64,000 nucleotides of DNA from Longimicrobiales bacterium. GTDB taxonomy: Bacteria > Gemmatimonadota > Gemmatimonadetes > Longimicrobiales > Gaopeijiaceae. Within the stretch, counting starts at the first letter, position 1. Each line of letters opens with the position of its first letter. The position numbers were made by a program, and so were the translations under genes. A model generated the notes under the pieces. The model did not search any database and was not told the DNA's origin. It was given only the letters and a program-made list of their open reading frames with translations. Where the stretch lies: contig JAPKBW010000010.1 in assembly GCA_028823235.1 (NCBI GenBank), forward strand, positions 1-64,000. Direction: 5' to 3'. Positions 7,440 to 13,942 of the stretch are shown here, in pieces.

Positions 7440-7767
7440 TCACGACCTGGATCGGTCAAGCATTGTGGCGTTTGAACACTCCTCTGGCCCCACGTACCTT
7501 GAGAACAGTCACGGCGATATCACCGGCCAAGGAGTAAACATTTTCGAAGCCCAGGTCGGCGTCGCCGCGCGGTGCAGCCGCATCGCCTTCAACGAGAGCT
7601 CCACCTTCGGAAACTGGGACTGGGATGTGACTCGGTGGGAGCGTTCCGTCGGATATCGAATCACACTGCACGCTGGCATCATGGCGAGCTACACCTTGAC
7701 GTCGGACGTCGGGCCTGCAGATCCTCGTGACAACCTCACCGCCGTTCGACTCTAGTGGGGATTCTGA
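7440..7767 (+). pseudogene. C-terminal remnant of an outer-membrane beta-barrel protein
   Basis: In the frame that ends at TAG 7753-7755 the last 90 codons read like barrel strands with alternating hydrophobic residues: GVNIFEAQVGVAAR, then TFGNWDWDVTRWE, then VGYRITLHAGIMASYTL, then a turn and NLTAVRL. The TAG is followed in frame by TGG GGA TTC TGA, i.e. Trp-Gly-Phe-stop. Terminal Phe is the classic BAM signal of outer-membrane proteins, so the TAG appears to interrupt the natural last strand four residues before its end. No convincing upstream barrel or start codon is seen before the divergent rnhA at 7301, so most of the gene is gone. Confidence 0.5.
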
Positions 7768-7778
7768 GGCCGGCACAC

Positions 7779-8684
7779 ATGCTCGACACTCAGCCCGCCA
7801 CGACGCACACGTCCGACGCACGACTCCTGACCTTCACGGCGTGGCACGCACGGGCCGCTTCACATCTCGAGCGCGTGCAGCGATGGACTCTTCCATACAA
7901 AGAGCGGCGCTCTCGCCACGAGAAGCACCCGGTCCACGATTTCCTTTTCCAGTACTACATGTACTCACCGGGGAAGCTCGAAGCCTGGCACCCCGCCCCA
8001 TCGGAGTCCCTCGCAGACTCTCCCCAAGCCCGCGATCGCTTCGGAGCTCCGGAGTACCGCGTAGATGCCGGTGTCCTCACGCACGACCTCGGCGCCCTCT
8101 CCCACAAGGGCCGAGAGCAACTGCACGAGGTGGTGGACGTTCTGGTCGCCACGCAAAGTCGACCCGCGAACTTCGGGTGCTACGGGGTCCACGAGTGGGC
8201 GATGGTCTACAAGGGCGACGACGTTCGTCACGCCGGAATCGCGCCGCTTCGACTACCCCAGGAAGAGGTCGACGAGTTCGTCGAGAGCCGACCCGTCGCA
8301 TGCAGTCACTTTGACGCCTACCGGTTTTTTGCTCCGGAAGCGAAGCCCCTGAACCGCATTCAGCTCGAGTGGTCGACCCGGCACGAGATGGAGCAGCCCG
8401 GCTGTATCCACGCCAACATGGATCTGTATCGCTGGGCCTACACAGCGATGCCCTGGATCGGGAGCGACCTCCTGCTGGACTGTTTCGAGTTGGCCGCGGA
8501 TCTGCGCGTGCTCGACATGGAGGCCAGTCCGTACGACCTCCAAGACCTCGGCTTCGAGCCGGTACGGGTGGAGACGCCAGACGGACGCGTCGAGTACCAA
8601 CGTCGGCAGAGAGAGTTCAGCGTGAGGGCTGAGGCGCTGCGGGCTCGGCTGATTGGAGCGGTGAAGGGAGTGCTCTCGGACTAG
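7779..8684 (+). CDS. conserved protein of a family often labelled 3-methyladenine DNA glycosylase
   Basis: 301 residues, starting at ATG 7779 behind a GAGG site nine bases upstream; a GTG at 7755 lacks such a site. The N-terminal block HPVHDFLFQYYMYSPGKL followed by EAWHP is the hallmark of a family that occurs in Actinobacteria and others, named 3-methyladenine DNA glycosylase by automatic annotation. I see no helix-hairpin-helix or other recognised glycosylase motif, so enzymatic activity is unproven. Conserved-looking His, Asp and Arg residues around HEWAMVYKG and CSHFDAYRFF suggest an enzyme. Soluble, no signal peptide. It stands alone, with the barrel remnant upstream. Confidence 0.6.
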   Translation: MLDTQPATTHTSDARLLTFTAWHARAASHLERVQRWTLPYKERRSRHEKHPVHDFLFQYYMYSPGKLEAWHPAPSESLADSPQARDRFGAPEYRVDAGVLTHDLGALSHKGREQLHEVVDVLVATQSRPANFGCYGVHEWAMVYKGDDVRHAGIAPLRLPQEEVDEFVESRPVACSHFDAYRFFAPEAKPLNRIQLEWSTRHEMEQPGCIHANMDLYRWAYTAMPWIGSDLLLDCFELAADLRVLDMEASPYDLQDLGFEPVRVETPDGRVEYQRRQREFSVRAEALRARLIGAVKGVLSD

Positions 8685-9088: not shown

Positions 9089-9553
9089 CTAGTTCTCCAA
9101 AAACTCCACCGACCAGGTAATCTCCACTGAGTCCTTGATCGACTGCGCCGTGGGGCACTTGCTCACGTGAGTCTCCAAGGCCCGAGACACCTTGTCCTCC
9201 GGGGCTTCTGAGGGCAGACGGATCGTATAGTGCATATGGATCTTCGTCAGCAGAATGATCCGTTCTACGACCTCATTCGTGCCTTCAGCCGTACAGCTGA
9301 TATCACCATTCGGAACCGTAATCCCGCGCACCTCCAGTGCGCCATTGAGTGTCCCGAGTAGTCAGCCGGCGGCTGCCGCGACGAGATAGTCGACGGGCAG
9401 CGGTAGGTTCGGCTGGGAATCCATGCCGTAGTGAGCTTTGATGGGGCCGTGAATTCCGAACTCCAGTTCGGTCCCGTCTTCGAGCGTGCCGCGCCGGTGC
9501 AGTCCGTCGACCTTGTCGACCGTTGCCCGCGCGATGTAGAGAGGTTCACTCAT
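9089..9553 (-). CDS. OsmC-family protein, probable selenoprotein (UGA at the catalytic Cys codon)
   Basis: 154 codons read through one in-frame TGA at 9364-9362 (codon 64). Residues 1-63 (MSEPLYIARATVDKV ... PLPVDYLVAAAAG) and 65-154 (LLGTLNGALEVRGI ... WSVEFLEN) are the two halves of one OsmC/Ohr-like domain in the same frame with no gap. In OsmC proteins the residue after the AAxAG helix turn is the peroxidatic Cys, and the second conserved Cys is present here as Cys133 (SKCPTAQSI). The single stop thus falls exactly on the catalytic thiol, the hallmark of selenocysteine, and a SECIS-like hairpin follows. OsmC-like selenoproteins are known from marine metagenomes. Expected role: thiol/selenol-dependent reduction of organic hydroperoxides. 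The ATG overlaps the end of the upstream gene. Confidence 0.8.
9326..9342 (-). promoter_or_regulatory. candidate bacterial SECIS element
   Basis: On the minus-strand RNA, GCGCAC (9342-9337), loop UGGAG (9336-9332) and GUGCGC (9331-9326) form a perfect six-pair stem with a five-base loop. The loop begins 26 bases after the UGA, inside the roughly 16-37 base window reported for bacterial SECIS elements, and has G as its second base, as the rule requires. It would recruit SelB with Sec-tRNA. It lies within the coding sequence, as bacterial SECIS elements do. Confidence 0.7.
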
Positions 9554-9868: not shown

Positions 9869-10069
9869 CTATCCCCCTGGTGTGGGCTCCTCATCCTGGA
9901 ACCCCACACACCGGAGAACCGGAAGTGGGGGGTACCGCCGATATCGTTGATCCGTGCTGGCGCGCTCGCAAAGATAGAAACGTGACCCGCGGCGGTTGCC
10001 CGTGATCCGGTGGTGCTTGCACGTGACACACAGGCCGATCCGGCGCCGAAGTCGTTCCGCGTCGGTCAC
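9869..10069 (-). CDS. 66-residue four-cysteine protein linked to pgeF
   Basis: Small basic protein that starts at a GTG overlapping the pgeF stop (GTGA), so it is translated with it. Cysteines occur as CVTC (14 and 17), in YLCERA (34) and in LRCVGF (54), with KHHRITGNRRGSR between the first and third. The spacing suggests a single zinc site, and the Arg-rich middle could bind nucleic acid or phosphate (inference). No known name. Overlap and length consistency make it a real gene rather than a chance frame. Confidence 0.6.
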   Translation of the reverse strand: MTDAERLRRRIGLCVTCKHHRITGNRRGSRFYLCERASTDQRYRRYPPLPVLRCVGFQDEEPTPGG

Positions 10070-10902
10070 GTCACGTCGTCCGGATGTCTCGAGCCCCTAG
10101 GCATGCGCTTCGCTATGTAACCGACCTGCCGACAGGCGTCTCCGCTTCGGTGGGAGAAGAGATTACTCGCGGAGCACTTGGTGCAATGTGTGGAGATGGT
10201 GATCTGCTCCTTCGGGACGCCACTCTTCGTCGCCCGCGCCGCGAGGACCCCCCTCAGGTCGATCGGTCGGGAAGCGTCGGGCACCATTTGGCCAAGCGCC
10301 TTGAAGACCTCCGGTCCCACCTCGTAACACGCGTCGCAAATCGCGGGGCCCAGGTGCATGTGCAGATCGGCAATCGCTGAATCGAACCGGCTCACGAACC
10401 CATCTAGTCCTGTCTCGAGAACACCAGCTGCAGCGCCTCGCCACCCAGCATGTACCTCGCCAACCGTCTCTGTAACAGGATCTACGAGAAAAACCGGGAC
10501 ACAGTCAGCGGTGGCTACAGTTACAAGGACCCCGGCTTCATCGATGACCTGGCCGTCGCAGGGCTCGCTGAGAATCGGAGGCTCGGCGGGACCGATGGAG
10601 TCGCCATGCCGTGACGAATGCAGAAACACGTCGGCGCCGTGTACCTGACGCTGGTGCCAGGCGGCATAGCATCCCGTTCGCCTGACCAGATTCTGCCAGT
10701 TGCTGCGCACGACCGGTTCGGAGCTGCCACTGCTGAAAAGGCCGAGGTCGAAAGGTGCCGCGCCGCGGCCTCGCGTGGTCGTCCCCTGGACCAACCACGG
10801 GAAGCGATCCACCCATTCCGGGTGGACCAGGGCCGGCACTTCCTCGAGTACGAATTCAGTCACGCGCCTGATGCCACCGTGATCTCCTACGGGCCTAGTC
10901 AT
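10066..10902 (-). CDS. pgeF: laccase-domain purine nucleoside phosphorylase / peptidoglycan editing factor
   Basis: COG1496 (YfiH) family. Conserved signatures: HQRQVHGADV near the N-terminal third, TADCVPVFLVDP, GEVHAGWRGAAAG, and HLGPAICDACYEVG. His and Cys in the VHGAD, ADC and HAGWRG motifs form the zinc site. The family includes enzymes with purine nucleoside phosphorylase/adenosine deaminase activity and E. coli PgeF, which removes wrongly incorporated residues during peptidoglycan synthesis. I use ATG 10902; TTG 10944 is a poorer option. Divergent from sucA, with about 110 bases between starts that must hold both promoters. Coupled to a four-Cys mini-protein. Confidence 0.85.
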   Translation of the reverse strand: MTRPVGDHGGIRRVTEFVLEEVPALVHPEWVDRFPWLVQGTTTRGRGAAPFDLGLFSSGSSEPVVRSNWQNLVRRTGCYAAWHQRQVHGADVFLHSSRHGDSIGPAEPPILSEPCDGQVIDEAGVLVTVATADCVPVFLVDPVTETVGEVHAGWRGAAAGVLETGLDGFVSRFDSAIADLHMHLGPAICDACYEVGPEVFKALGQMVPDASRPIDLRGVLAARATKSGVPKEQITISTHCTKCSASNLFSHRSGDACRQVGYIAKRMPRGSRHPDDVT

Positions 10903-11011
10903 GAGCGAAGTTAGGCCAACGCATACGATCCCTCCATGCACCAAGGAAAATGCTTTACTTTAAGCGTCCGCGGGGGCGGAGACCCCTCTTCATTGCTTGG
11001 GCCATCGGACC

Positions 11012-13942
11012 GTGACGGACGACACCCTTTTCGACAGTCTGAACGCCGCCTACGCACAGGCGATGTTCGAAGAATATGCTCGCAACCCGGAGGCTCTGCC
11101 CCCGGAGTGGCGCAAACTCTTTGAGAACGGCGGGAGCTTGGCAATGGCCGAGGGTCTCTTCGTGCCCGAGCAGATGGACACCGGTCGTCCGCTCGACGCG
11201 CCTGTGGCTGCCCCAGCCCCTCCAGTCGCCCAGACGCCGGCAGCGACTACCGCCTCAGCCCCGGCAGATCCGCCCGCGGCTCTTCCACCCGAGCCGTTGA
11301 CCCCAGGCGCAGCACTGATTCCGTCTCAGCTGGACTCCGATTCACAAGCACTCCTGAGGCTACTGCCTGCGGTGTCGCGTGCCACGGCATTGATTCAGGC
11401 ATTCCGAGATCACGGGCATCGGCTGGCTGCGGTCGATCCATTGGGAAGCGAGCCTCCGGGACATCCGCAGCTCTCTCCTGCATTCTTCGGTACGTCTCAG
11501 GAGGAGCTAGGGGCACTGCCAGCCTCGTTGGTCCTGACTGAGAACAGCGACCACGGTGATCGCTCTGTGGCAGACGCCCTCACGGACCTCGGTGAGGTCT
11601 ACGCCGGCTCGATCGGCTACGAGTTCGAGCATCTCGACGACCACGTCACGGTCAACTGGCTCTGGCAGCAGGTCGAGGCTGGGTCCCACCTACCCGAGCT
11701 GACCGCGTCCGACCGACGTGCGCTTCTTCAGCGCATCAGCGAAACGGAAGGTCTCGAGCAGTTCCTGCACCGGACGTATCTCGGGCAGAAACGATTCTCG
11801 ATCGAGGGCAACGACATGCTCGTGCCCATGCTCGACCTCCTGATCGAGGAAGTCGGAAGAAGCGGTGGCCATGACGTCGTCCTGGGGATGGCGCACCGGG
11901 GGCGGCTGAACGTCCTTACACATACCCTTGGCCTGTCGTACGGCGAACTGCTCTCCGAATTCGAGGGACCCTCATTCAAGGGCGGCCAACTCGATGTCGC
12001 GGGCACGGGAGACGTGAAGTATCACCATGGCGCCCGCGGAACGCGGCGTGTGGACGGTGCTGATGTTCGCATCACCCTCGCGCCGAACCCAAGTCACCTC
12101 GAGTTCGTGAATCCCGTGGTTATCGGGATGGCACGAGCGCTTCAGTTTGAGAATCTGGCCAAGGGTGCCGAGCCGGACTTCGACTCGGTAGTACCCGTAC
12201 TCATGCACGGCGATGCAGCTTTCGCAGCCGAGGGCGTCGTCGCCGAGACGCTCAACATGGCTCGCCTGCATGGCTACAACGTCGGTGGGACCATTCACGT
12301 CATCGTGAACAATCAGGTCGGCTTCACCACAGACCCGCGAGACGGACGCTCGACACACTACTCCAGCGATCTCGCGAAGGGCTACGGCATTCCGATCATC
12401 CACGTGAACGCGGATGACCCCGAGGCCTGCCTTGGTGCGATCCGACTCGCGATGGCGTTCCGGCGCGAGTTCCACGACGACTTCGTGATCGACCTCGTCG
12501 GCTATCGCCGACACGGTCACAACGAGGGCGACGAGCCAGCATACACGCAGCCCGTAAAGTACCGGAAGATCACGGCGCATCAGACGGTTCAAGAGCTCTA
12601 CTCGGCCCGACTCATCGACGAGGGCGCGATCAACGATGCTCAGGTCGCTGACATGCGTGCCGCGATTATCGACCAGCTCCGAGAGGTGCAGGACAACGTT
12701 CGCGAGTCGGATCCAGTCGTGGACGACGAGCCCGATGAGAGGCAGGAAGTACCCGTCGTGCCGGAATCGACAGGCGTCGCGCTGGAGGTGCTTGAGAGAA
12801 TCAATAAGGCTACGGTCGACGTGCCGGACGGCTTCACGCCCCATCCCAAGCTGTGGCGGCAACTCGGGCGTCGAGAGAGCGACTTCTCGCCAAATCGCAC
12901 CATCGACTGGGGTTACGCGGAAACGCTCGCCTTCGGCAGCCTGCTGCTGGAGGACATACCCATTCGCTTCACGGGGCAGGACGTGCAGCGGGGCACGTTC
13001 AGTCATCGCCACGTAGTGCTGCACGATTCCAAAAATGGAGACGAATTCGTGCCGCTCGCCGCGATGGCCGGGGCACGCCTCGAGGTGCACAACTCTCCCC
13101 TCTCCGAGACGGCCGTCATCGGTTTCGAGTACGGCTACTCGGTGGCCGCAGACAACGACGTCGTGTTGTGGGAGGCGCAGTTCGGTGACTTCGTGAACGT
13201 CGCCCAAGTCATGATCGACCAGTTCCTTTCGTCAGGTCTGACGAAGTGGGGACAATACTCGCGACTCACCCTGCTTCTGCCTCACGGTCAGGAAGGCCAA
13301 GGGCCCGAGCACTCAAGCGCTCGACTGGAGCGGTTCCTTCAGCTGTGCGCTGAGGACAACATGCGGGTCACCTATCCGACGACTCCGGCCCAGTATTTCC
13401 ACATGCTTCGCCGCCAGGCCCTGCGACGGCCTGAACGACCGATGATCGTGATGACGCCCAAGAGCCTCCTGCGCCATCCGAAGGCGACGTCCACGATGTC
13501 GGAACTCGCGGAGGGCGGCTTCAAGCACGTCCTCGATGACCCGACCACGGAGAGTCTGGATCAGATCACGAGACTCGTGCTTTGCTCCGGGAAAGTCTAC
13601 TACGACATTCAAGGCCATAGCCGCCGGGCGGGCTTGCCGCACGTCGCAGTCGCCCGCGTGGAGCTTCTCTACCCGTTCCCCACCGAAGCGCTCACCGCGC
13701 TCCTCGGGCGCTTCCCCAACCTGAAGGAAGTGGTCTGGGCACAGGAGGAACCGCGGAACATGGGCGGCCTCACGTTCGTGGGCCCGCGTCTTCGGGCCGT
13801 CGTCCCTCGGAAAATCCCACTTGCCTACGCCGCTCGGCCCGAACGGGCCAGTCCAGCTGAAGGGAAGGCGTCGACGCACGCCGCGGCACAGGAAGCCGTC
13901 GTCCTCGAGGCCCTTGGCATCGAGGCGGAGGACGCCGAGTAG
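11012..13942 (+). CDS. sucA: 2-oxoglutarate dehydrogenase E1 component
   Basis: About 976-residue thiamine-diphosphate enzyme that decarboxylates 2-oxoglutarate and passes succinyl to E2 in the TCA cycle. Visible: the E1o N-terminal E2-binding segment (LFDSLNAAYAQAMFEEYARN), an Ala/Pro linker (about 60-105), GMAHRGRLNVL, the ThDP motif with GDAAFAAEGVV and later NNQVGFTT, and the C-terminal transketolase-like portion with HGQEGQGPEHSSAR. I prefer GTG 11012; TTG 10999-proximal at 10997 adds only five residues. The size is normal. Neither E2 (sucB) nor E3 follows, unlike the common sucAB arrangement. Confidence 0.95.
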   Translation: MTDDTLFDSLNAAYAQAMFEEYARNPEALPPEWRKLFENGGSLAMAEGLFVPEQMDTGRPLDAPVAAPAPPVAQTPAATTASAPADPPAALPPEPLTPGAALIPSQLDSDSQALLRLLPAVSRATALIQAFRDHGHRLAAVDPLGSEPPGHPQLSPAFFGTSQEELGALPASLVLTENSDHGDRSVADALTDLGEVYAGSIGYEFEHLDDHVTVNWLWQQVEAGSHLPELTASDRRALLQRISETEGLEQFLHRTYLGQKRFSIEGNDMLVPMLDLLIEEVGRSGGHDVVLGMAHRGRLNVLTHTLGLSYGELLSEFEGPSFKGGQLDVAGTGDVKYHHGARGTRRVDGADVRITLAPNPSHLEFVNPVVIGMARALQFENLAKGAEPDFDSVVPVLMHGDAAFAAEGVVAETLNMARLHGYNVGGTIHVIVNNQVGFTTDPRDGRSTHYSSDLAKGYGIPIIHVNADDPEACLGAIRLAMAFRREFHDDFVIDLVGYRRHGHNEGDEPAYTQPVKYRKITAHQTVQELYSARLIDEGAINDAQVADMRAAIIDQLREVQDNVRESDPVVDDEPDERQEVPVVPESTGVALEVLERINKATVDVPDGFTPHPKLWRQLGRRESDFSPNRTIDWGYAETLAFGSLLLEDIPIRFTGQDVQRGTFSHRHVVLHDSKNGDEFVPLAAMAGARLEVHNSPLSETAVIGFEYGYSVAADNDVVLWEAQFGDFVNVAQVMIDQFLSSGLTKWGQYSRLTLLLPHGQEGQGPEHSSARLERFLQLCAEDNMRVTYPTTPAQYFHMLRRQALRRPERPMIVMTPKSLLRHPKATSTMSELAEGGFKHVLDDPTTESLDQITRLVLCSGKVYYDIQGHSRRAGLPHVAVARVELLYPFPTEALTALLGRFPNLKEVVWAQEEPRNMGGLTFVGPRLRAVVPRKIPLAYAARPERASPAEGKASTHAAAQEAVVLEALGIEAEDAE

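What the first reader, a model, noticed from the sequence alone, without database searches (positions are those of the whole stretch)
9089..9553. Candidate OsmC-like selenoprotein: UGA replaces the catalytic cysteine codon
Seen: a single TGA at codon 64 splits one OsmC domain into two perfectly in-frame halves, with no indel. The TGA occupies the position of the conserved peroxidatic Cys, and the second conserved Cys (133) is intact. Known: OsmC-like selenoproteins were reported from marine metagenomes, and Sec almost always replaces a catalytic Cys. Random decay would hit exactly this codon with low probability. A homology-only annotation would call two fragments here.
Basis: partly seen in the sequence, partly recalled or inferred. 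Interest (0 to 1): 0.88.

Follow-up and report, generated by a model that had tools for sequence, protein, structure and literature searches.

The report
OsmC-family selenoprotein gene of Gemmatimonadota
A gene that looks broken by a stop codon is almost certainly an intact gene for a peroxide-detoxifying protein in which the "stop" inserts selenocysteine at the catalytic site; this kind of selenoprotein was already known, but this branch seems always to carry selenocysteine and current annotation models miss it.

Summary
In detail: on the minus strand (9553..9089) one in-frame TGA at codon 64 splits an otherwise intact 154-residue OsmC-domain gene. TGA sits where OsmC proteins carry the catalytic Cys; Cys133 is intact. 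The interpretation also holds. The source genome (a Gemmatimonadota MAG) has tRNA-Sec(UCA), SelA, SelB and a SelD that itself carries an in-frame UGA, plus three peroxiredoxin-like UGA genes and a second OsmC UGA gene. All 58 distinct orthologue sequences and 10 paralogue sequences examined carry exactly one TGA at this codon. A bacterial SECIS hairpin (GCGCACU-GGA-GGUGCGC, 26 nt after UGA) keeps 475 of 476 pairs over 68 sequences, with compensatory changes, and its codons show almost no synonymous variation. No Cys form of the two subfamilies was found in 395 Gemmatimonadota genomes. OsmC-like selenoproteins have been known since 2005 (Sargasso Sea), but NCBI's model for them (NF041052) does not reach its cut-off in any of 200 genomes of the phylum. 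Verdict: a genuine selenoprotein gene, in a new, apparently Sec-only subfamily of a known selenoprotein kind. Sec insertion and peroxidase activity remain inferred, not measured.

The parts
9089..9553 (-). osmC-like selenoprotein gene, 154 codons plus TAG stop; ATG at 9553-9551
   Evidence: Translation; Pfam OsmC 56.8 bits; AlphaFold2 model pLDDT 95.7; closest PDB folds E. coli OsmC and Ohr
9362..9364 (-). TGA codon 64, read as selenocysteine, at the catalytic (peroxidatic) Cys position
   Evidence: Invariant TGA in 58 distinct family-A and 10 family-B sequences; aligns with the catalytic Cys of 1ukk
9326..9342 (-). Predicted bacterial SECIS hairpin GCGCACU-GGA-GGUGCGC; 7 bp (last one U-G), apical loop GGA beginning 26 nt after the UGA
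   Evidence: z = -4.4; pair probabilities 0.998-1.0 for six pairs; 475 of 476 pairs kept; synonymous entropy near 0 at codons 71-77; meets all four bSECIS constraints given in PMC13188914
9155..9157 (-). Codon of Cys133, the intact second (resolving) Cys in the invariant CP motif
   Evidence: Invariant C133-P134 in alignment A2; aligns with the second Cys of 1ukk
10069..10944 (-). Neighbouring yfiH-like (Cu-oxidase_4) gene, neighbour also in close relatives; context only
   Evidence: Pfam PF02578 156 bits; frame cluster in 15 of 43 loci
10997..13942 (+). Neighbouring 2-oxoglutarate dehydrogenase E1 (sucA/odhA); context only
   Evidence: Pfam PF00676, PF02779, PF16870; frame cluster in 15 of 43 loci

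Best explanation
The locus is a functional gene for an OsmC/Ohr-fold selenoprotein. During translation SelB, bound to the hairpin 26 nt downstream, delivers Sec-tRNA(UCA) to UGA64, giving a full-length 154-aa protein with Sec64 at the first catalytic position and Cys133 as partner. By analogy with OsmC/Ohr, Sec64 attacks a hydroperoxide, becomes a selenenic acid, and forms a selenenylsulfide with Cys133 that a cellular thiol donor then reduces. Shown here: gene structure, conservation, SECIS covariation, complete Sec machinery, OsmC fold of the model. Inferred: actual Sec insertion, peroxidase activity, substrate and electron donor.
For: tRNA-Sec 70.9 bits with anticodon TCA. SelA 430 bits, SelB 325 bits over cut-off, SelD 387 bits with an in-frame UGA at SHGAG-U-ACK. 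58 of 58 distinct orthologues and 10 of 10 paralogues carry one TGA at this codon; every full-length match listed phylum-wide has exactly one TGA. The SECIS-like hairpin keeps 475/476 pairs, with A-U replaced by G-C on both sides in 17 sequences and C-G by U-A in one; near-zero synonymous entropy at codons 71-77 against 0.8-1.9 bits in most neighbouring codons. Presence of the gene goes with SelA: 31 both, 16 neither, 4 and 8 discordant, Fisher p = 1.6e-5; the four without SelA have a tRNA-Sec above cut-off, so those look like assembly gaps. Three peroxiredoxin-like UGA genes in the same genome.
Against: No protein or selenium measurement. Synonymous recoding of the same peptide gives a hairpin at least this stable in 40 of 5000 cases and all seven pairs in 356, so the peptide itself favours a hairpin. 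The Fisher test ignores shared ancestry. Peroxidase activity and substrate rest on fold and active-site analogy only.
Confidence: 0.96

Rival explanations
1. Pseudogene: the TGA is a nonsense mutation in a decaying osmC gene.
For: A single stop splits the domain; a homology-only annotation would see two fragments.
Against: The same TGA in all 58 distinct orthologues and in a 36%-identical paralogue, strong protein conservation after it, no other internal stop.
Confidence: 0.01
2. Reassigned code: UGA read as Trp or another residue genome-wide.
For: UGA is read through in several genes of this genome.
Against: 23 of 40 long stop-to-stop frames of the window end in TGA (frames on both strands, not verified genes). 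The UGA genes seen are all at catalytic Cys/Sec positions, and tRNA-Sec with SelA/B/D is present.
Confidence: 0.01
3. Two separate proteins or programmed truncation: the UGA acts mainly as a stop, the hairpin regulates expression, and the 3' half is re-initiated.
For: A GTG at 9331 could in principle start the 3' half.
Against: The hairpin and the residues around the UGA lie between the halves and are among the most conserved stretches; helix 53-75 of the model runs across residue 64, so each half alone would be an incomplete fold.
Confidence: 0.02

Closest known systems
OsmC-like selenoprotein of the Sargasso Sea and GOS metagenomes (PMC1088965, PMC2398784; listed in the 2026 review PMC13188914)
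   Same: OsmC domain, Sec at the catalytic Cys position, SECIS hairpin just downstream of UGA
   Different: The published motif is UxxT; here it is U-L-L-G-T (T at U+4). Published cases were 3 and 5 sequences; this is a subfamily in many Gemmatimonadota genomes with no Cys counterpart found. The published sequences themselves could not be aligned here.
NCBIfam NF041052 OsmC_like_Se (OsmC-related (seleno)protein)
   Same: OsmC domain, same Sec position expected; best NCBIfam match (39 bits)
   Different: Score far below its cut-off of 95; no genome out of 200 in the phylum passes the cut-off
OsmC and Ohr organic hydroperoxide reductases (E. coli OsmC 1qwi/1nye, T. thermophilus 1ukk, C. violaceum Ohr 6ebg/6ecy)
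   Same: Fold (TM 0.64-0.78) and the pair of redox residues
   Different: About 20% identity; Sec instead of the first Cys; ULxGT signature and SECIS
Second OsmC UGA paralogue in the same genome (G000:C16:6783-7226, family B)
   Same: Same UGA position, near-identical SECIS hairpin, U-L-T-G-T-F-G-G-A-L-E-A-R-G-I
   Different: 36% identical; a separate group with different N-terminal part and a CPVY-type second motif

Membership tests
Bacterial selenoprotein gene | In-frame UGA at a redox-active Cys position | tested here: met
Bacterial selenoprotein gene | bSECIS: apical loop 3-9 nt, stem 4-16 bp, G in first two loop positions, 16-37 nt from UGA, MFE at or below -7.5 kcal/mol | tested here: met
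   Loop GGA (or UGGAG), stem 6-7 bp, 26 nt spacing, hairpin -11.3 kcal/mol (constraints from PMC13188914)
Bacterial selenoprotein gene | selA, selB, selC, selD in the genome | tested here: met
Bacterial selenoprotein gene | UGA conserved in homologues of other organisms | tested here: met
Bacterial selenoprotein gene | Sec present in the protein | not testable with these tools
   Needs mass spectrometry or 75Se labelling
OsmC superfamily (PF02566) | Pfam gathering score and OsmC fold | tested here: met
   56.8 bits against 27.5; Foldseek best matches are OsmC/Ohr
OsmC superfamily (PF02566) | Two redox residues, one in the central helix and one in the later CP motif | tested here: met
   Sec64 and Cys133, both invariant
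NF041052 OsmC_like_Se | Score above curated cut-off 95 | tested here: not met
   39 bits
Ohr/OsmC peroxidase | Hydroperoxide reductase activity with thiol or lipoyl donor | not testable with these tools
   Biochemical assay needed

The most novel reading that the evidence does not exclude
Two sister OsmC clades in Gemmatimonadota are Sec-only: they have no surviving Cys counterparts, so Sec is obligatory for their chemistry rather than an optional upgrade of a Cys enzyme, and Cys/Sec-pair discovery methods would tend to miss them. Together with a third, YhfA-like UGA family in the same class, the phylum would have three OsmC selenoprotein lineages.
Probability: 0.6. Interest if true: 0.5.

Novelty: new member of a known kind. 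Interest (0 to 1): 0.42.

Why it matters
Standard gene calling splits or truncates this gene, and the NCBI model for OsmC selenoproteins does not reach its cut-off in any of 200 genomes of the phylum searched. It adds a selenium-dependent peroxide-defence branch to Gemmatimonadota, for which text searches of the held open library found no account of OsmC selenoproteins. A Sec-only clade would be a useful case for asking why some proteins never revert to Cys.

Tried and rejected
Pseudogene, code reassignment and split-gene readings were tested and set aside (see rivals). Plasmid records hold no relative. A scan of the window for other in-frame TGA genes by codon usage ranked this gene fifth; the higher-ranked frames were not checked individually against protein families, and none is claimed. 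'2 TGA' OsmC matches in two relatives (G126, G157) turned out to be one internal TGA plus the normal TGA stop, not di-Sec proteins. The one match of the families' profile without TGA that reached 1e-15 (L138) stops at a contig end at residue 63, so it is no Cys form; L136 is a classical Cys OsmC, not an orthologue. The closeness of the 2-oxoglutarate dehydrogenase E1 gene suggested a lipoyl donor, as reported for Ohr (own knowledge), but no E2 gene was recognised among the long frames just downstream (read by eye, not tested by profile), so it is left as a weak hint. An alignment of only two DNA sequences added nothing.

Full report
OBSERVATION. The minus strand from 9553 to 9089 reads MSEPLYIARATVDKVDGLHRRGTLEDGTELEFGIHGPIKAHYGMDSQPNLPLPVDYLVAAAAG-TGA-LLGTLNGALEVRG...KCPTAQSIKDSVEITWSVEFLEN-TAG: one in-frame TGA at codon 64, no indel. 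With the TGA read through, Pfam OsmC covers residues 51-147 with 56.8 bits against a cut-off of 27.5. A profile of the family aligns residue 64 with the catalytic Cys, and Cys133 with the second Cys, of Thermus thermophilus OsmC.

ORGANISM AND SEC MACHINERY. Close relatives are Gemmatimonadota MAGs, many labelled Longimicrobiales or Gemmatimonadales. The source assembly (3.14 Mb, 90 contigs, 97% complete) has a tRNA-Sec of 70.9 bits with anticodon TCA, SelA (430 bits), SelB (325 bits, over cut-off) and SelD (387 bits). SelD itself carries an in-frame UGA in SHGAG-U-ACKLG, where I expect the catalytic Cys/Sec of SelD (own knowledge). Three AhpC/TSA-family genes in the genome also have one in-frame TGA, two in W-U-PYC and one in TRG-U. 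Of five OsmC-domain genes, three have no stop and two have one TGA.

CONSERVATION. Among 58 relatives plus the genome itself, every strong match to the protein has exactly one TGA; the 42 loci from the GTDB-based contig collection do too. 58 distinct family-A sequences, 48 to 99% identical to the query, and 10 family-B sequences (30 to 36%) all have TGA at this codon. In 395 genomes of the phylum, 116 have matches at E <= 1e-8, and all matches listed have one TGA (the table was truncated). The weak matches were followed up: no Cys form of either family was seen, and the matches without TGA are a contig-end fragment (L138), a classical Cys OsmC (L136) and a fusion protein (L139). Invariant residues include R20, H35, D55, residue 64, G67, T68, E74, R76, Y109, R124, H129, C133 and P134.

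SECIS. RNA from the UGA folds far better than shuffles (z = -4.4). The core is GCGCACU-GGA-GGUGCGC with the loop starting 26 nt after the UGA; six pairs have probability 0.998 or more. Over 68 sequences 475 of 476 pairs are kept. One pair is A-U in 50 and G-C in 17 sequences with one G-U intermediate, and another is U-A in one sequence instead of C-G. The G-C change makes Val into Ala on the 3' side and is silent on the 5' side, so it is not simply a protein constraint. Codons 71 to 77 show synonymous entropies of 0 to 0.6 bits, against 0.8 to 1.9 bits for most codons before and after. The element meets the four bSECIS constraints in the 2026 review (PMC13188914). As a caution, codon-usage-based synonymous recoding of this peptide produces a hairpin at least as stable in 40 of 5000 trials and all seven pairs in 356: the conservation across sequences carries more weight than the single-sequence fold.

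ASSOCIATION WITH SEC MACHINERY. In the 59-genome set, 31 have both OsmC-Se and SelA, 16 neither, 4 only the OsmC gene and 8 only SelA (Fisher p = 1.6e-5, tables; not corrected for shared ancestry). The four genomes with the gene but no SelA all have a tRNA-Sec above cut-off, so they probably miss selA through assembly gaps.

MECHANISM. AlphaFold2 from 45 family sequences gives a confident model (pLDDT 95.7; residue 64 modelled as Cys) whose nearest solved structures are OsmC and Ohr proteins. The best reading is a peroxidase in which Sec64 is the attacking residue and Cys133 resolves it. Sec insertion, substrate and electron donor are inferred. The neighbours yfiH and 2-oxoglutarate dehydrogenase E1 recur as neighbouring frame clusters in about 15 of 43 loci, which fits vertical inheritance but does not show a functional link.

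KNOWN OR NEW. OsmC-like selenoproteins were found in the Sargasso Sea (3 sequences, motif UxxT; PMC1088965) and GOS data (5 sequences; PMC2398784), and remain listed in the 2022 and 2026 reviews. NCBIfam has a model, NF041052, which scores this protein 39 bits against a cut-off of 95 and passes its cut-off in none of 200 Gemmatimonadota genomes. Gemmatimonadota are not mentioned in the 2026 review, and I found no paper on OsmC selenoproteins in this phylum in the open library. Hence: a new, apparently Sec-only subfamily of a known selenoprotein kind. Sec-only was tested for this phylum and for close relatives in the GTDB-based collection only.

Noticed in passing
L094 (G000:C16:6783-7226, minus strand): A second OsmC-domain UGA gene in the same genome (family B, 36% identical), with a near-identical SECIS hairpin GGCGCGCUGGAGGCGCGC.
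   Followed up: yes
L144-L151 (same-class genomes G126, G157, G127, G160, G197, G188, G071, G060): A third OsmC UGA family, motif LGA-U-TSMTIALYARRK, with its own conserved hairpin TCGCGC-UGUAU-GCGCGA a short way after the UGA; it was found through weak NF041052 matches, all below the cut-off of 95.
   Followed up: partly
L018 (G000:C10:120945-121871, plus strand; same contig as the window, outside it): selD with an in-frame UGA at the expected catalytic site (SHGAG-U-ACK), so SelD is itself probably a selenoprotein.
   Followed up: partly
L114, L115, L118 (G000:C10:118273, C2:174739, C11:3257): Three peroxiredoxin-like genes with one in-frame TGA at the active site (W-U-PYC twice, TRG-U once); typical selenoprotein motifs.
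   Followed up: partly
window 7755-8684, plus strand: A 309-codon open frame with no Pfam match, between an RNase H gene and the selenoprotein gene; overlapped by shorter frames on both strands.
   Followed up: no
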